Shown here: one piece after another, positions 55,470 through 64,000 of the stretch
How positions within the stretch are numbered: position 1 is the stretch's first letter
How the letters are laid out: each line of letters opens with the position of its first letter
From: Thermodesulfobacterium hydrogeniphilum
GTDB lineage: Bacteria; Desulfobacterota; Thermodesulfobacteria; Thermodesulfobacteriales; Thermodesulfobacteriaceae
Assembly (NCBI RefSeq): GCF_000746255.1
Contig: NZ_JQKW01000014.1
Location: forward strand, 18,094 to 82,093
Reading direction: 5' to 3'
Length of the DNA stretch: 64,000 bases
Translations under genes and position numbers: made by a program
Notes under the pieces: generated by a model
What the model was told of the DNA's origin: nothing
Database searches by the model: none
The model's input: the letters and a program-made list of their open reading frames with translations, nothing else

Positions 55470-56731
55470 GAATTTATACTCTTTTATATTACTTAGGAGC
55501 TGGAATTTCATTACCAAAGGAATTTTTAAAAAGACCTCCCAAAATTCGGGGAAAATGGCTTAAAGATAAATTAGCTATTTTTCCTACGATTTTTTCTGAA
55601 AAAGAAATGATCTGGATTCATGCTGTTTCTGTAGGAGAAGTTGTAGCTGTTTCTAAATTGGTTAAAAAGCTTTCTAAAAGATATGATATTCTTTTAAGCA
55701 CTATTACAGATACAGGGCAAAAAGTTGCTAAAGAAAAATTTAAAGATCTTCCTGTAAAAACTATCTATTTACCCTTAGATTGCCCTTTTGCCATAAAAAG
55801 AACTTTGAAGGCTTTTAAACCAAAAGCTCTTTTAATTGCAGAAACAGAGCTCTGGCCTAATTTAATTGTAACAGCTTCTAAGCATGTTCCTGTTTTTTTA
55901 ATAAATGGAAGACTTAGTGAAAAATCTTTTAAAAATTATCAAAAAGTAAAATTCTTTATAAAATCTATTTTAGACTGTTTATCTTTTATTGCGGTACAAG
56001 AAGAAGTTTATAAAGACCGTTTCAAAGCTCTGGGGGTTTCTGATAATAAAATTTTTGTAACAGGTAATACCAAGTTTGATATAGAAATCAAAGAAATTGA
56101 TTTTTTTTGGGAAAAATATCTTATAAAACCGATAATTATTGCAGGAAGCACTCATTTTCCAGAAGAAGAATTAATTACAAAAAGTTTTCTTAAACTTGAT
56201 AACTCTGCCACTCTTTTAATAGTTCCAAGACATCCTGAAAGATTTGATGAAGTAGAAAATACTATAAAAGGATTGATAAAAGGGTATGCTGAAACAGGAT
56301 TTTTTAGATTAACTTCAGCTTATATTAATAAAAAGGATTTAAATAATTTTAAAAAACTTATTATTCTTGTTGATAAAATGGGAATTTTGGGATCACTTTA
56401 TAGAATATGTGATATAGCTATTATAGGAGGAAGTTTTATTCCTCATGGGGGACAGAATCCTTTAGAAGCTATTTATTGGAAAAAACCTATTATTTTCGGT
56501 CCTTCTATGGAAAATTTCCCTTTTGTTAAAGAATTTTTGGAAAAAAAAGCCTGTATTCAAAGTGATAAAGAATCTTTATTTTATCATTTAAAAAATTTAA
56601 TTGAAGATAAAAAATTACAAAAAGATTTAGGAAAAAGGGCTTATCAAATTTTTAAAACAAAAAGCGGAGTTACAGAAAAAATTTTAAAATTGCTTGATAA
56701 ATACGGACTTTCTATATCAGAATCAGATTAA
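55460..56731 (+). CDS. waaA: 3-deoxy-D-manno-octulosonic acid transferase
   Basis: 423 residues. It transfers KDO from CMP-KDO to lipid A, so the cell has a lipopolysaccharide outer membrane. Family features are IWIHAVSVGEVVAVSKL (about residues 50-66), LLIAETELWPNLI, NGRLSEKSFKNY and GGSFIPHGGQNPLEAIYW near residue 325. An N-terminal membrane-associated segment is present. It ends the asd operon and overlaps the convergent HD-GYP gene by 9 bases. Confidence 0.95.
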   Translation: MWLGIYTLLYYLGAGISLPKEFLKRPPKIRGKWLKDKLAIFPTIFSEKEMIWIHAVSVGEVVAVSKLVKKLSKRYDILLSTITDTGQKVAKEKFKDLPVKTIYLPLDCPFAIKRTLKAFKPKALLIAETELWPNLIVTASKHVPVFLINGRLSEKSFKNYQKVKFFIKSILDCLSFIAVQEEVYKDRFKALGVSDNKIFVTGNTKFDIEIKEIDFFWEKYLIKPIIIAGSTHFPEEELITKSFLKLDNSATLLIVPRHPERFDEVENTIKGLIKGYAETGFFRLTSAYINKKDLNNFKKLIILVDKMGILGSLYRICDIAIIGGSFIPHGGQNPLEAIYWKKPIIFGPSMENFPFVKEFLEKKACIQSDKESLFYHLKNLIEDKKLQKDLGKRAYQIFKTKSGVTEKILKLLDKYGLSISESD

Positions 56732-57817
56732 TTTAACAGAATTAAAAGAAAAACCGAATTTAATATCTTTTTCTTGTTCATCAAGGGCATACCTGGAGAA
56801 AATTTCAAATATTTCCTTTTCACTTGCTAAAAATGCTTCTACAAGTTCTGGATCAAAGTGTTTACCCTTCCCTTTTTCAATGAATTCCATAGCATCTTCA
56901 AATTTCCAAGCCTTTTTATAAGGTCTTTCTGAGGTAAGAGCATCAAATACATCTGCTAAAGCTACAATTCTTCCGTATAAAGGTATATTTTCTCCTTTTA
57001 AACCATAGGGATAACCTGTTCCATCCCATCTTTCATGATGGGATAGAGCAATTATTGCACCAACACGAAGATAGGGATTTTTACAATCTTTAAGCATTTG
57101 GTACCCAACTATGGTGTGTTTTTTCATAAGTTCCCATTCTTCAGGGGTTAATTGTCCTGGTTTAAGCAAGATATTATCAGGGATTGCGAGCTTTCCTATA
57201 TCATGAAGTGTAGAAGCATAAAAAAGTATTAACTGTTTCTTTTTGTTAAGTCCTATTTTCTCAGCAAGAAGTTTAGAATAATGAGCCATCCTTACAATGT
57301 GCACCCCTGTAATTGTATCTTTGCATTCTGCAGCTTTACCCAAAAGGATTAAAGCTTCTTTTTCTCTTTCTTGAATGGTTTTGGTAGCCTTTCTAACCTC
57401 TTCTATCAATCTTTTATTAAAATTTTTTAAAACATTATGTGCTTCTTTAATTTTTGCTAAGTTTTTAATACGCACTTGGAATTCAATTGGATCAAAAGGT
57501 TTACCCAAAAATTCAGTAGCTCCGGCTTCTAAAGCTTTAACCTTTATTTCATAACTTTCTCCAAAAGCTGTAATCATTACACAAATAATATTTGGATCAA
57601 ATTGATGAATAGTTTTTATCATTTCTATTCCATCTAAATTAGGCATCATATAATCTACCAAAACTATATCAGCTCCTTCAAATTTGATAAATTCTAAAGC
57701 TTCCATTGGATTAAGAAAAGTCTGGATATAATATCCCAAATTTTTACACAATTCTTCTATTAATAAAAGCATTACTTCATCATCATCTACAGCAACTATC
57801 CTCAAATTTTTTTTCAT
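56723..57817 (-). CDS. Response regulator with HD-GYP output domain
   Basis: 364 residues from ATG 57817. This start gives an ATGA overlap with the kinase gene; another ATG seven codons upstream has no better support. The receiver domain (about 1-120) has the acidic pocket DDD, phospho-acceptor Asp55 (LVDYMMPNLDG), the T/S and Lys106 (GKPFDP). The output domain (about 155-350) has the full HD-GYP set: HDIGKLAIPDN, HHERWDGTGYP and RIVALADVFDAL. Proteins with both are c-di-GMP phosphodiesterases of the RpfG type. It is the last gene of the hydrogenase and kinase operon. Confidence 0.93.
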   Translation of the reverse strand: MKKNLRIVAVDDDEVMLLLIEELCKNLGYYIQTFLNPMEALEFIKFEGADIVLVDYMMPNLDGIEMIKTIHQFDPNIICVMITAFGESYEIKVKALEAGATEFLGKPFDPIEFQVRIKNLAKIKEAHNVLKNFNKRLIEEVRKATKTIQEREKEALILLGKAAECKDTITGVHIVRMAHYSKLLAEKIGLNKKKQLILFYASTLHDIGKLAIPDNILLKPGQLTPEEWELMKKHTIVGYQMLKDCKNPYLRVGAIIALSHHERWDGTGYPYGLKGENIPLYGRIVALADVFDALTSERPYKKAWKFEDAMEFIEKGKGKHFDPELVEAFLASEKEIFEIFSRYALDEQEKDIKFGFSFNSVKLI

Positions 57818-60000
57818 TTCCTTTTCTCTTGTTTCCATGATTTATAAGCTTCTTCTAATTTTTTAGCTTCATATTTAAGATTTTCAAATAATCTAAAACA
57901 TGTTTCAATTTCTTTCATACGAGCTTTCTTCTCCAACTTTTGGCTTAATAAATACAAACTGTCTAATCTTAAAGAACCACTACTTCCTTTAAAATTATGA
58001 GCCACTTTAGCTAATTTTTCACAGTCTCTTTCTTTAAGGCATTCTTCTATCTTTTGTAATCTATGTGGTAAAGCTTCAAAGAATTTATCTACAAGTTTCT
58101 CAAGAACTTTTTCAGAAAGTCCCAGTTCTAATTTTGCTTTTTTAATGAAGGAAACATCTTTCAAAGGTTCTTCTTTTTTAACTTTTTTATAACTTTCTTC
58201 TATTTCAACCTTAGCATATTTTTCAAGGATTTTTTCAAGATCCTTAGCTGAAATAGGTTTAGATATATAATCATCAAAACCAGCTTTTAACAGTCTTTCT
58301 TTTTCTCCAGCAAAAGCATGAGCAGTTAAAGCTATTATTGGTATATTTGTAAATTCTTTTTTAATTTGTTTCATAGCTGTTTCTCCATCCATTACAGGCA
58401 TACTAATATCCATAAAAATAAGATCATATCTATTCTTTTTTACTTTATTAATCGCAATAAGTCCATTTTCAACAGTATCAAACTCTACACTGTATTTTTT
58501 AAGTAGTTCTTCTATGAGAATTCTTGCAATTTCATTATCTTCAACTACAAGGACTTTTGCTTTAAATCTCTTCCTTACCTTTTCTTCTGTTTCTTTTTCT
58601 ACATCTGCAATTCTGACTAAAACATTATATAAATCTAAAAGCTTAGATGAAGTTACTTTTATCTTTTCATTTTCTATTTCTATAGCTTCATCACTAATCA
58701 AAATTAAATTGCTACAATCTGGAAAAAGATCTAAAAATTTCTTTAGATTATCAATATTAAAAAAAATGCCTACATCAAAGTGCTTTTCTCCGCTGCTTAT
58801 TTGTTCTAATTTTAAATGGTAAAAGGGTATTTTCCAAAGATCTAATATATGAGCTATTTCTTTACTTTTTGAATCTTCAGTTTCTTCTATAAAAACATTT
58901 TTTAATCTATACAACTCATTTATTGAAACTTCAGGAATACATTTTTCAAATTCTGCTGTAAAATAAAAAGTAGAACCTTCACCTACTTTGCTTTTAACTT
59001 TTAACTCTCCTCCGATCATTTTGACTAAGGATGAAGCAATACTTAAACCAAGTCCTGTTCCACTATAGTTAGATGCTCTATCTCTGTAGATTTGAGAAAA
59101 TTTTTCAAATATATCTTTAAGCTTTTCCTCTGGAATACCTATTCCTGTATCTCTTACTTCAAACTTTAAAATTTGACTGTTTTCTTTATCTTTTACAACT
59201 TTAATTTTTATTTCAACTTCTCCTTTATCTGTAAATTTTATAGCATTGCTTATTAAATTGTTTAAAATTTGTCTTAAAGCCTGAACCGGGAAAATTAAAC
59301 ACTCAGAAATACAAGGATCAAAATTATATATATAATTTAAATTTTTTTGTTCAGCTTCAGGAGCAAAAACTTTAACTATTTGATCAAGTTCTAAATATGG
59401 ATTCACATTTGTATAACCCAATTCATATTTTCCTTCTTCAATTTTAGCCATATCTAAAATGTCATTTACAATAGCTAATAAACTTTGTACTGAAGATTTT
59501 ATAATTTCTACATAACGTCTCTGTAAACCAGTTAAATGAGTTTGATTTAAAAGCTCTATAAATCCGACAATTCCTGTAAGAGGTGTGCGGATTTCATGAC
59601 TCATTTTAGCAAGAAAATCGCTTTTTGCTTTGCTGGCTATTTCTGCTTCCTCTTTAGCTTTTAATAATTCTTTTTCCATTATTTCTCTTTTTTTAATTTC
59701 ATCTAACAATTGTCTATGTTTTTCCTCTAATTCAACCTGACTTTTGGCTAATTGTGAATATAATGTTTCAATATGTTCTATTACAGCACAAAAAAGATTC
59801 TCCTGTTCCTCAAATTCTTTTATTTTTTGAAGCAAATTTTCATAGAAAGATTGTTTTCTTTTTTTTAATTTTATCTCTTTATTTATAAATGTATCAAATA
59901 AATGTTTAATTTCATTTAAAATTTGAGAAGTATCTTCTTCCTGTTTTTCAAGATCTTTAATTTTCTCTACAAATTCTTCATAAATAGATTTGGTTGTCAT
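57814..60000 (-). CDS. Soluble hybrid histidine kinase with receiver and HPt domains
   Basis: 728 residues, no membrane segment and no recognisable PAS or GAF domain. Residues about 5-125 are a charged coiled coil. HisKA follows with His135 (DFLAKMSHEIRTPLTG), then HATPase (DTGIGIP near 285, GTGLGLSIA near 315). Residues 355-470 look like a degenerate receiver, then a complete receiver with Asp531 (LIFMDISMPVMDG) and Lys581, and a C-terminal HPt with His668 (VAHNFKGSSG). The phosphorelay order is that of BarA/ArcB-type kinases. It shares an operon with the hydrogenase genes upstream (51-base gap, AGGAGA ribosome binding site) and the HD-GYP regulator downstream, so its input is likely a protein partner. 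Confidence 0.92.
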   Translation of the reverse strand: MTTKSIYEEFVEKIKDLEKQEEDTSQILNEIKHLFDTFINKEIKLKKRKQSFYENLLQKIKEFEEQENLFCAVIEHIETLYSQLAKSQVELEEKHRQLLDEIKKREIMEKELLKAKEEAEIASKAKSDFLAKMSHEIRTPLTGIVGFIELLNQTHLTGLQRRYVEIIKSSVQSLLAIVNDILDMAKIEEGKYELGYTNVNPYLELDQIVKVFAPEAEQKNLNYIYNFDPCISECLIFPVQALRQILNNLISNAIKFTDKGEVEIKIKVVKDKENSQILKFEVRDTGIGIPEEKLKDIFEKFSQIYRDRASNYSGTGLGLSIASSLVKMIGGELKVKSKVGEGSTFYFTAEFEKCIPEVSINELYRLKNVFIEETEDSKSKEIAHILDLWKIPFYHLKLEQISSGEKHFDVGIFFNIDNLKKFLDLFPDCSNLILISDEAIEIENEKIKVTSSKLLDLYNVLVRIADVEKETEEKVRKRFKAKVLVVEDNEIARILIEELLKKYSVEFDTVENGLIAINKVKKNRYDLIFMDISMPVMDGETAMKQIKKEFTNIPIIALTAHAFAGEKERLLKAGFDDYISKPISAKDLEKILEKYAKVEIEESYKKVKKEEPLKDVSFIKKAKLELGLSEKVLEKLVDKFFEALPHRLQKIEECLKERDCEKLAKVAHNFKGSSGSLRLDSLYLLSQKLEKKARMKEIETCFRLFENLKYEAKKLEEAYKSWKQEKRK

Positions 60001-60051
60001 AAAAAATTTCTCCTAAATTTTCTTCCTTTTAATCAATTTTTATTAAGGGGG

Positions 60052-61524
60052 CTATTTTTTCTTTTTGTATATATGGGTACTACACACTAAACAAGGATCA
60101 AAAGATCTAATTACATGATATATCTCTACAGGGTTTTCTTCATCTTCTATTTCCATACCTAATAAAGTTTGTTCTACCACTCCTAATCTACCATAAGAAT
60201 CTCTCGGGGAAAAATTCCAGGTAGTGGGAGTAATTATTTGATATCTTTTTATTTTACCATTTTCTATAACAATCCAATGTCCTAAAGCTCCTCGTGGTGC
60301 TTCAGTAAGTCCCACTCCTAAGGTATTAAGTAAAATATCATATTTTTTATAAACTGGCTCTTCTGGGTCAACTTTATTTAGCCAGTTTTCTAATGCCTTT
60401 ATTAATATCAACGATTCTTGAAGTTTAGCTAAAACTCTTACCAATATACTTGCTTTAAATTTGTTAAAATAGTCAAGTATGAGAGGATCATTATTAATAA
60501 TTAATCTTGCTAAGGATCCTACTTCTACAACATTATTATCATAACGGGGAGACTTTATCCAGCTATAGGCTTTTAATTTATCTATATCTGGTTGAGTTTT
60601 ACCTTCTAAAGGGTATTCAATATTTTTATCATTTGCATACCAAGAATATTCTATATGTTCTGCTATTTTTTGAGGATCAAAAGATTTACACTCACTATTG
60701 AAATAACCACTTTTAAAGAACAGAGTTCCATCAGGTTCCTCAAATGCTCCAAAACAAAGAAACTTTCCTATACTTACTCCTAATCTATCTAAACTAAGTT
60801 CTTGGGCTACACGAATAAAAAATCCTATATCGCTTTCAGCATGATCTTTTTTCTCTTCAAGCCACTTTTCTACATCTTCAACTTTTTTATTTTTCATCCA
60901 TCTATCTAAGGAACAACCTAAAAATTTTTTTTCAAGAAAATCTTTAAATTCATTTAAGATTCCTAAAGCACGAATTATTTCTCCAAAAGTTAAACTTTTA
61001 GTTACTCCTCCAGGTTGAAAAGCAAGCGCATTAGGCCATTTTCCTATTAAAATTCCTAATAGCTCAAGCAATTTTTTTCTTTCTTTTATGAAAGAAAGAT
61101 AAGACTCTCCTTTCATAGGAGCAAAACGTTGATAAGCTTCTTTATAGAAAGATAAATTTTTATATTTTTTATTTATAAAGTCTATTATGAAATATAAATA
61201 AAAATGGGTTAAATTACTTAAAATAATTTCACAGGCATGAGAAATATTTCTTAAATAATAAGCATTAGGCGGCATTTCAGCTGCGTAGGCATTTTTTAAA
61301 GCTTTAGAAGCTGCGATAGAATGTGATAAATTACAAATTCCGCAAATTCTTGGAGTAAAAACAAGAGCATCTATAGGATCTCTTCCTTCTAAAATTATTT
61401 CAAATCCTCTAAACATTACACCAGATACATGCACATTTATAATAGTTTTATTTTTTATATCAACTTCTATCTTTAAATCACCTTCAATCCTTGTAAAAGG
61501 GCTTAATACAATCTTTTTACCCAT
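60052..61524 (-). CDS. [NiFe] hydrogenase large subunit, sensory-type candidate
   Basis: 490 residues. The nickel ligands are Cys61 and Cys64 (RICGICNLSH, with His68) and Cys478 and Cys481 (DPCLVCSTH). Glu14 in SPFTRIEGD is also present. After His484 only six residues (IYKKKK) remain, much shorter than the usual cleaved maturation peptide of catalytic enzymes. There is no partner cytochrome or ferredoxin subunit. Gene order, with the small subunit 14 bases upstream and a histidine kinase downstream, recalls sensory hydrogenases (HupUV/HoxBC). Whether it is catalytic or sensory is inference. Confidence 0.9.
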   Translation of the reverse strand: MGKKIVLSPFTRIEGDLKIEVDIKNKTIINVHVSGVMFRGFEIILEGRDPIDALVFTPRICGICNLSHSIAASKALKNAYAAEMPPNAYYLRNISHACEIILSNLTHFYLYFIIDFINKKYKNLSFYKEAYQRFAPMKGESYLSFIKERKKLLELLGILIGKWPNALAFQPGGVTKSLTFGEIIRALGILNEFKDFLEKKFLGCSLDRWMKNKKVEDVEKWLEEKKDHAESDIGFFIRVAQELSLDRLGVSIGKFLCFGAFEEPDGTLFFKSGYFNSECKSFDPQKIAEHIEYSWYANDKNIEYPLEGKTQPDIDKLKAYSWIKSPRYDNNVVEVGSLARLIINNDPLILDYFNKFKASILVRVLAKLQESLILIKALENWLNKVDPEEPVYKKYDILLNTLGVGLTEAPRGALGHWIVIENGKIKRYQIITPTTWNFSPRDSYGRLGVVEQTLLGMEIEDEENPVEIYHVIRSFDPCLVCSTHIYKKKK

Positions 61525-61538
61525 AAAATATCTCTTTT

Positions 61539-62504
61539 TTAATCTATCCTTTTAAAAGAAATAGCATTTTTCTTTACTCTTTCAGGGGTTGCAGCTTTAG
61601 CAAGAGTTGAAATTCCAATATACCAGGCCTTAGGAACATCCTTAGGTAAAGTAACAGGAATATCAGCAATTTTTTTAGTTTCAAAAAAGGGAACTGATCC
61701 ATCAGGAAAATCTGGAGAAGTACAGGCTATACACGGAAAACCACCTCTCACACAGCTTCCTGTTCTTCCAAGCCAGAGACGAATATTACAGTCTGAAAAA
61801 CAAACAGTTCCTTTACATCCAAGATGTTCAAATAAGCAGCCTTGTTGTCCAAATTCTAAAGCTGAGGCTTTAAACTCATAATATTCATTTCTTGGGCACC
61901 CATGATGAGATAAGTGGTTGTAAAATTCCTTAGGCCTTTGGTATTCATCCAGATCTTTTAGAGAAAGTTTTCCAAATGTTATCATGCCAAGGGTCTCCAT
62001 AAGCCAATCTGGATGGGCAGGACATCCTGGTATGTTAATAACAGGAAGTCCAGATTTGGAGGTATATTTAGCACCGAGGAATCCACCCTTCTGATTTCTC
62101 AAAAATTGTAATCCAGTTGCTTCAGTGGGATTAGAACCTGCAGCTGGTATACCTCCAAAAGAAGCACAGGTACCTAAAGCTATTAAATATTTGCAAACCT
62201 TGGCTAAATTTTCTAACCAATCTTTGAAAGGTTTATCATTCCAAATAAAGTATTTTCCAGAGTTCTTAGGTCCTAAAGGTACAGAGCCTTCTACAATTAA
62301 AATATCTAAGGGTATTTTACCATTGAGTATTTCTGTAAACAAGCCAAATATCTCGTCTCCCATATCCGCACTTAAAGATGGATGCCATAAAAGATTTAAT
62401 TTTAACATTTTAAATCCTGTAATAATATCAGGTTGTTCGGCATTTAAAAAAGAAAAAGTATCTCCGCCACAACTTAAAGCTTTTAACCACAATACATTCA
62501 TCAT
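61539..62504 (-). CDS. [NiFe] hydrogenase small subunit without export signal
   Basis: 321 residues. The protein starts directly with NVLWLKALSCGGD and has no twin-arginine signal or C-terminal anchor, so it is cytoplasmic. Cluster ligands by spacing are Cys12, Cys113 and Cys161 for the proximal cluster, with Asp15 in place of the usual second Cys (CGGD); His200, Cys203, Cys223 and Cys230 for the distal cluster; and Cys239, Cys258 and Cys261, with Cys251 as a possible fourth, for the medial cluster. GLQFLRNQKGGFLG and PVINIPGCPAHPDW resemble group 1h and group 2 small subunits. It is the first gene of the hydrogenase, kinase and HD-GYP operon. Confidence 0.92.
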   Translation of the reverse strand: MMNVLWLKALSCGGDTFSFLNAEQPDIITGFKMLKLNLLWHPSLSADMGDEIFGLFTEILNGKIPLDILIVEGSVPLGPKNSGKYFIWNDKPFKDWLENLAKVCKYLIALGTCASFGGIPAAGSNPTEATGLQFLRNQKGGFLGAKYTSKSGLPVINIPGCPAHPDWLMETLGMITFGKLSLKDLDEYQRPKEFYNHLSHHGCPRNEYYEFKASALEFGQQGCLFEHLGCKGTVCFSDCNIRLWLGRTGSCVRGGFPCIACTSPDFPDGSVPFFETKKIADIPVTLPKDVPKAWYIGISTLAKAATPERVKKNAISFKRID

Positions 62505-63802: not shown

Positions 63803-64000
63803 CTATCTAAAAACTAATCCCCTTTCTAATTGAGTAGCAGCAAAATATATCCAATCAATATGCACTATCTGTTTGGTAAACCATATCTTTAATCGCCGAG
63901 CATGTTTTACTACTTTGGCTGCCACTCTTAAAAAATGCTTAATTATTGTGCAGGGACGACATCTTCTGGCTTTCTCTGGCAAAAGATTATATTGCATTCC
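63803..64000 (-). mobile_element. C-terminal part of a transposase (IS1380-like)
   Basis: The frame is open to the right window edge and ends in TAG at 63803-63805, giving at least 65 residues. CRPCTIIKHFLRVAAKVVKHARRLKIWF resembles the C-terminal end of IS1380/IS4-type DDE transposases, where a basic RHARR-like helix follows the catalytic domain (the string is quoted in part; the key element is VAAKVVKHARR). The catalytic residues would lie beyond the window, so intactness and family remain uncertain. Confidence 0.55.

What the first reader, a model, noticed from the sequence alone, without database searches (positions are those of the whole stretch)
56723..62504. Four-gene operon linking a [NiFe] hydrogenase to a c-di-GMP regulator
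Small subunit, large subunit, soluble hybrid histidine kinase and HD-GYP response regulator are all leftward, with gaps of 14 and 51 bases and an ATGA overlap, and no terminator between them. The hydrogenase has no export signal and no electron-transfer partner gene. The kinase has no recognised sensory domain, only an N-terminal coiled coil. The simplest reading is that the hydrogenase is the hydrogen sensor, the kinase relays the signal and the HD-GYP protein lowers c-di-GMP, so that hydrogen would control adhesion or motility. Sensory hydrogenases of the HupUV/HoxBC type act through a kinase to a transcription factor; I recall that hydrogenase classification proposed a putative sensory class (group 2c) near two-component and c-di-GMP genes, and this operon may be a well-formed example.
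Basis: partly seen in the sequence, partly recalled or inferred. Interest (0 to 1): 0.88.

Follow-up and report, generated by a model that had tools for sequence, protein, structure and literature searches.

The report
Hydrogen sensor wired to c-di-GMP
Four neighbouring genes in a bacterial genome pair a hydrogenase of the hydrogen-sensor lineage with a relay kinase and a predicted enzyme that destroys the signalling molecule c-di-GMP, so the cell would likely use hydrogen gas to decide whether to stay attached or move on.

Summary
The four genes are present as described. The large subunit keeps its active-site cysteines; the pair has no export signal and no canonical C-terminal tail. Trees of both subunits put it on the HupUV/HoxBC (2b) side of group 2, as a separate deep lineage, not in the clade with diguanylate-cyclase neighbours that I take as group 2c (HydDB could not be run). 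The kinase's N-terminal coil holds a 27-residue match to a motif of HupT/HoxJ-type kinases. Among 395 genomes of the phylum the motif matches at E<0.001 in two, the two where I found a 2b-side hydrogenase. Loci of the 2c-type clade carry a different motif (22 of 22 rows), once directly on a diguanylate cyclase; respiratory 2a loci carry neither (0 of 27). Kinase, receiver, HPt and HD-GYP residues are intact, so a relay ending in c-di-GMP hydrolysis is predicted. Orthologues of large subunit, kinase and HD-GYP apparently share contigs in two other sources; 40 other genomes of the class show no match. No H2, phosphorylation or c-di-GMP effect has been measured.

The parts
61539..62504 (-). [NiFe] hydrogenase small subunit, 321 aa, no signal peptide; proximal-cluster motif CGGD (Asp15 in place of Cys); Cys251 as in 2b; extra Cys235
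60052..61524 (-). [NiFe] hydrogenase large subunit, 490 aa; C61, C64, C478, C481; Ile63 and Tyr111 at the recalled gas-channel positions; 6-residue tail after the last motif
57814..60000 (-). soluble hybrid histidine kinase, 728 aa: helical N-terminus, HisKA (H135), HATPase_c, degenerate receiver-like domain, REC (D531), Hpt (H668)
59707..59787 (-). kinase residues 72-98: segment matching the type I N-terminal motif of HupT/HoxJ-type kinases; proposed docking helix for the hydrogenase
56723..57838 (-). REC-HD-GYP response regulator, 371 aa (364 if started at Met8, 57817); predicted c-di-GMP phosphodiesterase

Best explanation
Four adjacent same-strand genes, likely one transcript, encode a [NiFe] hydrogenase on the HupUV/HoxBC side of group 2 that likely senses H2 in the cytoplasm and would control, through the neighbouring hybrid kinase, a predicted HD-GYP phosphodiesterase that lowers c-di-GMP. 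Shown: the gene order, the intact catalytic residues, the phylogenetic side, the short-tailed large subunit, and the HupT/HoxJ-type motif in the kinase N-terminus. Inferred: the hydrogenase binds the kinase through that motif helix (residues 72-98). Phosphate then passes H135 -> D531 -> H668 -> D62 of the regulator, and phosphorylation opens the HD-GYP active site. The sign I commit to is: without H2 the kinase is on, the regulator is phosphorylated, c-di-GMP falls and the cell detaches or swims; with H2 the hydrogenase silences the kinase, c-di-GMP rises and the cell stays. The sign is the least certain step.
For: Large-subunit trees: the window clade lies with 2b and its deep relatives at SH-aLRT 99 (85 rows) and bootstrap/SH-aLRT 100/98 (54 rows); the small-subunit tree agrees, 98/95 (51 rows). 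Position 111 is aromatic in 4 of 4 window-clade rows and in 31 of 31 2b rows, Leu in 9 of 9 group 1 rows, Leu or Ile in 27 of 27 2a rows. A motif profile built from 18 proteobacterial 2b kinase segments hits the window kinase at residues 72-98 (20.6-21.3 bits). In 395 genomes of the phylum it hits at E<0.001 only G000 (1.6e-5) and G044 (1.6e-9); ten more lie between 0.016 and 0.09. By locus (seeds included): type I in 24 of 31 2b loci and 7 of 7 deep 2b-side loci, type II in 22 of 22 2c-type rows, either in 0 of 27 2a and 0 of 4 archaeal loci. In L104 the type II motif (residues 22-54) sits directly on a 239-aa GGDEF protein beside the hydrogenase, as expected of a docking module. Kinase residues 1-124 find only 3 homologues besides the query's own (788 candidates). 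HD-GYP motifs align intact with 4mcw. The own genome has a group 1 hydrogenase with a Tat-like N-terminus, an Mvh/Hdr-like set and a HypD-like ORF (named by eye), and 18 GGDEF, 6 EAL, 2 HD_5, 6 PilZ and 2 flagellin matches.
Against: The Gln that marks regulatory hydrogenases (31 of 31 2b rows here) is His in the window clade (4 of 4). A short tail is not proof of a sensor: 2b rows have none (31 of 31), but so have 7 of 27 group-1-like rows. Ile63 is shared by 2a (27 of 27) as well. The motif match is weaker than in true 2b kinases, orthologue P0123 reaches only 7.1-8.7 bits, and the motif lies in a coiled coil, where chance similarity is easier; 7 of 31 2b loci show no type I match in the stretch held. 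Asp15 removes a proximal-cluster cysteine, as in the 2c-type clade (20 of 20) and unlike 2b (Cys in 27 of 27). The window's residue make-up is flagged as unlike the alignment's, which can pull its place in a tree. G044, the closest relative held in the phylum, has hydrogenase and kinase but no HD-GYP beside it. 'Same contig' for the orthologues is inferred from equal contig lengths. A Glu of 4mcw (segment KDPETQNH; a metal ligand, recalled) is Ile here.
Confidence: 0.72

Rival explanations
1. Same complex, opposite sign: H2 activates the kinase, the HD-GYP protein is phosphorylated and c-di-GMP falls when H2 is present.
For: Two-component logic in general; nothing in the sequence fixes the sign.
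Against: The characterised 2b kinase HoxJ phosphorylates in the absence of H2 (PMC10073562, passages), and this kinase shares the N-terminal motif type of kinases beside 2b hydrogenases.
Confidence: 0.35
2. It is a group 2c (diguanylate-cyclase-linked) hydrogenase, with a phosphodiesterase in place of a cyclase.
For: The c-di-GMP neighbour fits the 2c description in HydDB Table 1 (PMC5037454, passages) and a paper that speaks of co-transcribed cyclases/phosphodiesterases (PMC4853749, passages). The CGGD motif is shared with the 2c-type clade. Three 2c-type loci have HD-GYP neighbours (L064, L082, L125).
Against: Both trees separate it. An AU test of window clade + 2c-type clade gave p 0.026 (the groups were named after a tree was seen, so this p is optimistic). 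Small-subunit 251 is Cys, where the 2c-type clade has Lys in 20 of 20. The kinase has no type II motif. My 2c-type clade is anchored by gene context, not by HydDB reference sequences.
Confidence: 0.1
3. The hydrogenase is a catalytic uptake enzyme and the two regulators are neighbours that control something else.
For: All active-site ligands are intact; the best solved relatives are the respiratory Huc subunits; short tails also occur in 7 of 27 group-1-like rows.
Against: No redox partner beside it, 2b-side placement, the motif in the kinase, and apparent contig sharing of LSU, kinase and HD-GYP in two other sources.
Confidence: 0.1
4. The kinase answers redox state or another cytoplasmic cue; the hydrogenase only tunes it by delivering electrons rather than by H2-dependent docking.
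For: The small subunit has an extra cysteine (C235) found in the deep 2b-side rows only; no PAS domain was found in the kinase.
Against: No cofactor-binding domain is recognised in the kinase.
Confidence: 0.15

Closest known systems
Regulatory hydrogenase HoxBC with kinase HoxJ (HupUV/HupT), HydDB group 2b
   Same: No signal peptide, short tail, Ile63 and an aromatic at 111, kinase neighbour with the type I N-terminal motif, 2b side of both trees
   Different: Outside the canonical 2b clade; His68 in place of Gln; CGGD in place of CGGC; hybrid kinase with REC and HPt and no PAS hit; output is HD-GYP and not an NtrC-type activator
HydDB group 2c, diguanylate-cyclase-linked (putative) hydrogenases
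   Same: Kinase and c-di-GMP enzyme as neighbours; CGGD motif
   Different: Different clade (2c-type clade named here from gene context), kinase N-terminal motif type II, Lys at small-subunit 251
Deep 2b-side loci of Aerophobetes (L027, L151, L156), Spirochaetes (L033), Desulfobulbaceae and a Deltaproteobacterium (L058, L029) and G044 (L118, L119)
   Same: Same small-subunit clade, extra C235, kinase next door
   Different: No adjacent HD-GYP gene in the stretch held (short for L151, L156 and G044); L027 and L033 have an NtrC-type regulator
Huc, Mycobacterium group 2a hydrogenase (7utd, 7uus, 7uur)
   Same: Best solved structural relative of both subunits by sequence
   Different: Respiratory enzyme (recalled); conserved 19-residue C-terminal tail in the mycobacterial rows; neither motif in 27 2a loci
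REC-HD-GYP regulators; PmGH structure 4mcw (name PmGH recalled)
   Same: HDIGK, HTIxGY and HHERWDGTGYP motifs intact
   Different: Glu of the DPETQNH segment is Ile here

Membership tests
HydDB group 2b (HupUV/HoxBC regulatory hydrogenases) | Position on the 2b side of group 2 in both subunit trees | tested here: met
HydDB group 2b (HupUV/HoxBC regulatory hydrogenases) | Inside the canonical proteobacterial 2b clade | tested here: not met
   2b rows form their own clade without the window, 100/100 and 100/99
HydDB group 2b (HupUV/HoxBC regulatory hydrogenases) | Gln in place of the conserved second-sphere His (PMC5665086, passage; position assigned by me) | tested here: not met
   His68; 2b rows Gln 31 of 31
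HydDB group 2b (HupUV/HoxBC regulatory hydrogenases) | No cleavable C-terminal extension, no export signal | tested here: met
   6-residue tail; 2b rows 0 in 31 of 31, but also 0 in 7 of 27 group-1-like rows; N-terminus MMNVLWLKALSCGGD
HydDB group 2b (HupUV/HoxBC regulatory hydrogenases) | Narrow gas channel with bulky residues (Ile and an aromatic; positions recalled) | tested here: met
   Ile63 (also in 2a), Tyr111
HydDB group 2b (HupUV/HoxBC regulatory hydrogenases) | Neighbouring kinase with the type I N-terminal motif (my own criterion) | tested here: met
HydDB group 2b (HupUV/HoxBC regulatory hydrogenases) | NtrC-type transcription activator as output | tested here: not met
   Adjacent regulator is REC-HD-GYP
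HydDB group 2b (HupUV/HoxBC regulatory hydrogenases) | Low H2 turnover and H2-dependent kinase control | not testable with these tools
   needs purified proteins
HydDB group 2c (diguanylate-cyclase-linked, putative) | Position in the clade with GGDEF neighbours (context-anchored, 17-19 rows) | tested here: not met
   AU p 0.026 (groups chosen after a tree)
HydDB group 2c (diguanylate-cyclase-linked, putative) | Diguanylate cyclase gene in the cluster | tested here: not met
   HD-GYP instead
HydDB group 2c (diguanylate-cyclase-linked, putative) | HydDB classifier call | not testable with these tools
   no access to HydDB
HydDB group 2a (respiratory, Huc type) | Conserved C-terminal tail; Lys at small-subunit 251; Asn15 | tested here: not met
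HD-GYP c-di-GMP phosphodiesterase | HD and GYP motifs with their histidines and aspartates | tested here: met
   alignment to 4mcw, E 9e-62, residues 155-347
HD-GYP c-di-GMP phosphodiesterase | Hydrolysis of c-di-GMP | not testable with these tools
   needs an assay

The most novel reading that the evidence does not exclude
H2-sensing hydrogenases are a swappable front end. Two lineages of group 2 each evolved their own docking helix for their partner (type I on the 2b side, type II in the 2c-type clade, once fused straight onto a diguanylate cyclase), and each was wired to c-di-GMP independently. Here the HupUV/HoxBC-side sensor was cut loose from hydrogenase-gene transcription and joined through a four-step phosphorelay to one of two HD-GYP phosphodiesterases found in the genome, making H2 a lifestyle signal in an anaerobe.
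Probability: 0.5. Interest if true: 0.78.

Novelty: new variant of a known kind. Interest (0 to 1): 0.64.

Why it matters
H2 is a main currency of anaerobes. A 2022 review of c-di-GMP stimuli has no occurrence of 'hydrogenase', 'molecular hydrogen' or 'hydrogen gas' in its main text (PMC8846402, term search), and HydDB lists H2 control of c-di-GMP only as putative. This small, complete cluster makes the question directly testable with four purified proteins. The two N-terminal motifs give a simple way to find the partners of sensory hydrogenases in genomes, and a concrete interface to mutate. I saw no description of such motifs in the passages read; my one search aimed at it (HoxJ, HupT, coiled-coil, N-terminal domain; three of four terms) listed a single paper, a genome report that I did not open.

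Tried and rejected
Group 2c placement: not supported by trees, residue 251 and the kinase motif. Recent foreign origin by base composition: the cluster is 29.8% G+C against a mean of 29.6 (sd 1.3) for other stretches of the window, so composition does not show it, although the other 40 genomes of the class have no match at E<=1e-60 (11 of the 41 genomes fall outside the 90% complete / 5% contaminated bounds). AU tests joining the window clade with 2a and with 2b did not finish. The kinase model is poor (mean pLDDT 65, pTM 0.35); I take from it only a long N-terminal helix and an extra alpha/beta domain. Promoter scan: 31 sites against 29.8 in shuffles, not used. Rows dropped: large-subunit rows under 455 aa (loci) or of 470 aa or less (proteins), repeats of the same gene and second, non-group-2 copies were left out; 230 were kept, 85 used and 54. 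G044 has only pieces of the large subunit and is not in those trees; its small subunit is. L010 and L019 were missing. Bootstraps had not fully settled (0.989). The row called window in the large-subunit trees and the first row of the kinase alignment are the database representatives P0001 and P0121, which differ from the window at 2 of 490 and 6 of 728 residues.
Full report
What is there. The four leftward genes are at the given coordinates and have the given spacing. Pfam gives the small and large [NiFe] subunits, a kinase with HisKA, HATPase_c, REC and Hpt, and a REC-HD_5 regulator. The regulator start is open: the long ORF overlaps the kinase by 25 bases, while the start at Met8 gives ATGA; three orthologues are 350-356 aa against 371, which favours a later start. 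No terminator-like site lies in the gaps. Upstream are tRNA-Leu and tRNA-Pro, both leftward. Downstream a rightward gene converges and overlaps by nine bases.

The hydrogenase. All four nickel-site cysteines are invariant in 39 aligned sequences. The large subunit stops six residues after the last motif. The tail is 15, 19 or 33 residues in the 27 2a rows, none in 31 of 31 2b rows, and variable (4-22 where measured) in the 2c-type rows; group-1-like rows have 15-16 in 18 of 27 but none in 7. So the short tail fits a sensor but does not prove one. The residue before the second cysteine is Ile63, as in 2a, 2b and most 2c-type rows (group 1: Val in 9 of 9). Position 111 is Tyr or Phe in 4 of 4 window-clade rows (2b Phe 31 of 31; 2a Leu or Ile 27 of 27; group 1 Leu 9 of 9). 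From recall these are the two positions said to narrow the gas channel of regulatory hydrogenases; that sensors have such a channel is in PMC5665086 (passages). One 2b mark fails: the Gln of regulatory hydrogenases is His68 here.

Placement. A large-subunit tree of 85 rows puts the window and P0002-P0004 with 2b, Aerophobetes, Spirochaetes and Desulfobulbaceae rows (SH-aLRT 99), apart from a clade of 19 rows (the 2c-type clade) that holds the four loci with a GGDEF gene downstream in the cluster (L102, L104, L124, L127) and three with HD-GYP neighbours (L064, L082, L125). GGDEF-motif ORFs also occur in the flanks of three 2b loci (L038, L043, L079) and HD-GYP ones in two (L067, L070), kilobases off or on the other strand. 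A more careful tree of 54 rows gives 100/98 for the 2b side and 100/98 for 2a plus the 2c-type clade. The small-subunit tree agrees: the window sits in a deep lineage of eight rows (100/96), sister to 2b (98/95), while 2a and the 2c-type clade join at 99/90. An AU test of the window clade with the 2c-type clade gave p 0.026; the groups were chosen after seeing a tree. Small-subunit residue 251 is Cys in the window, in 27 of 27 2b rows and in the seven other deep-lineage rows counted, but Lys in 27 of 27 2a and 20 of 20 2c-type rows. HydDB describes 2b as histidine-kinase-linked and 2c as diguanylate-cyclase-linked and putative (PMC5037454, Table 1 passage). My '2c-type' clade is named from gene context, not from HydDB references. 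Aquifex L088 falls with 2a, so 2d was not separated.

The kinase link. Looking at kinases beside these hydrogenases, I saw two N-terminal motifs. Type I, around WxDVIQKMDEVYxxLVxxQVELExKN, occurs beside 2b hydrogenases. Type II, around ENxLREEIRVAREAAEITAxLVVKQFEETE, occurs beside the 2c-type clade. A profile from 18 different 2b segments, with no window sequence in it, matches the window kinase at residues 72-98 with 20.6-21.3 bits, and the Aerophobetes, Spirochaetes and G044 kinases at 30-44 bits; the three Desulfobulbaceae-type kinases score only about 10. Counted by locus over all ORFs (9 bits or more, seeds included): type I in 24 of 31 2b loci and 7 of 7 deep 2b-side loci; type II in 22 of 22 2c-type rows (L040 and L108 look like one contig); neither in 27 of 27 2a loci, 4 of 4 archaeal loci and 7 of 31 2b loci. 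Counted by kinase: of 73 different kinase ORFs, 35 have type I, 18 type II, none both, 20 neither; these include the profile seeds and two rows of the window kinase, and the 20 include orthologue P0123 at 8.7 bits and three other kinases within 700 bases of a hydrogenase gene. In L104 the type II motif (46.5 bits) sits directly on a 239-aa GGDEF protein next to the hydrogenase, with no kinase ORF found between, as expected if the motif is a docking module and not a general kinase coil. The widest control is a scan of 395 genomes of the phylum with the 2b motif: two genomes match at E<0.001, G000 (the window kinase, 1.6e-5) and G044 (1.6e-9); ten more match between 0.016 and 0.09. In the same 395 genomes 14 have a large subunit at E<=1e-60. 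G000 and G044 are the two that I place on the 2b side (G044 by its small subunit); ten others have type II motifs or lie in the 2c-type clade, and two (G083, G191) are other hydrogenases. So the motif tracks the hydrogenase lineage. That it is the contact surface is inference.

Relay and output. H135, D531 and H668 are invariant in the four orthologous kinases, and the regulator's REC has Asp62 in the usual place (sequence). Residues 155-347 of the regulator align with 4mcw and keep HDIGK, HTIxGY and HHERWDGTGYP; a Glu of 4mcw in the segment KDPETQNH is Ile here. Receiver control of HD-GYP enzymes is plausible: in Desulfovibrio vulgaris three of four HD-GYP response regulators hydrolysed c-di-GMP, isolated domains were more active than full-length proteins, and an unphosphorylated receiver is cited as limiting access to the active site (PMC4114195, passages). 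The own genome has 18 GGDEF, 6 EAL, 2 HD_5 and 6 PilZ matches (one PilZ under its cut-off) and 2 flagellin matches, so this regulator is one of two HD-GYP proteins found and there are likely targets. It also has a group 1 hydrogenase whose small subunit carries an SRRDFLK (Tat-like) N-terminus, an ORF with the FCGGHTH motif of HypD (recalled), and an Mvh/Hdr-like set (named by eye).

Conservation. Within the class of 41 genomes only the window's genome has a match at E<=1e-60. In the large protein collection the large subunit has three close relatives (64-71%), the kinase N-terminus has three (65-73%) and the regulator has three (72-75%). For two sources the longest contig is 24951 and 18882 bases in all three searches, so the genes very probably sit together there. 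Gene order could not be read. G044, the nearest held genome of the phylum (small subunit 68%), has the large subunit followed by a PAS kinase and then an aminotransferase gene, without HD-GYP in the short contig.

Sign. In Cupriavidus, HoxJ phosphorylates its regulator when H2 is absent (PMC10073562, passages). If the same holds here, H2 turns phosphorylation off, the phosphodiesterase rests and c-di-GMP rises. For a cell that lives on H2 this means staying where H2 is. I give my sign about 65%.

Known and new. H2 control of c-di-GMP was already proposed for group 2c, so the idea is not new. New here, as far as these searches go, is the same output on a 2b-side hydrogenase with a complete phosphorelay, and the pair of lineage-specific motifs. 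Searches made: NiFe, hydrogenase, group 2c, sensory, cyclic: 0 papers; regulatory hydrogenase, histidine kinase, HD-GYP, hydrogen: 0; 28 papers, 20 listed; passages of PMC10787695 and PMC5037454 read; H2-sensing, hydrogenase, c-di-GMP: 3; passages of two read; HoxJ and HupT; passages of PMC10073562 and PMC5665086 read; group 2c, hydrogenase: 3; passages of two read; sensory hydrogenase, diguanylate cyclase: 0; 1 listed, not opened. The 2016 classification paper behind HydDB and the HoxJ interaction paper (both recalled or cited in what I read) were not read.

Noticed in passing
L104:10924-11643: A 239-aa diguanylate cyclase next to a 2c-type hydrogenase carries the type II motif at residues 22-54 of its own N-terminus, with no kinase ORF found between: a possible one-step H2-to-c-di-GMP sensor.
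   Followed up: partly
L102, L124, L127 and other 2c-type loci: Kinases beside the 2c-type hydrogenases share their own N-terminal motif (ENxLREEIRVAREAAEITAxLVVKQFEETE); 18 of 73 kinases, 22 of 22 2c-type rows over all ORFs.
   Followed up: partly
window 61539-62504 (residue C235); L027, L033, L058, L119, L151, L156: Deep 2b-side small subunits carry an extra cysteine (CESDC or CFSDC) that the 2a, 2b, 2c-type and group 1 rows counted lack; a possible redox or cluster role.
   Followed up: no
window 61539-62504 (residue 15): The second cysteine of the proximal-cluster motif is Asp in the window, G044, Desulfobulbaceae-type and 2c-type rows, Asn in 2a, Ser or Glu in Aerophobetes/Spirochaetes, Cys in 2b.
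   Followed up: no
L154:9060-10951 (G000:C1:45059-46950): Two short ORFs with GGDEF and GGDEF/EAL pieces lie about 2.2 kb upstream of the group 1 hydrogenase genes of the same genome.
   Followed up: no
window 63803-64000: The contig ends inside a short open ORF at the window end, so what lies beyond the tRNA genes is cut off.
   Followed up: no
L030, L031, L032: Archaeal (Hydrothermarchaeota, Archaeoglobi) group-2-like hydrogenases with a 13-residue tail and neither motif in the stretches held.
   Followed up: no
window 57814-60000, residues about 365-470: The kinase has an alpha/beta domain between ATPase and REC with no Pfam match, looking like a degenerate receiver.
   Followed up: partly
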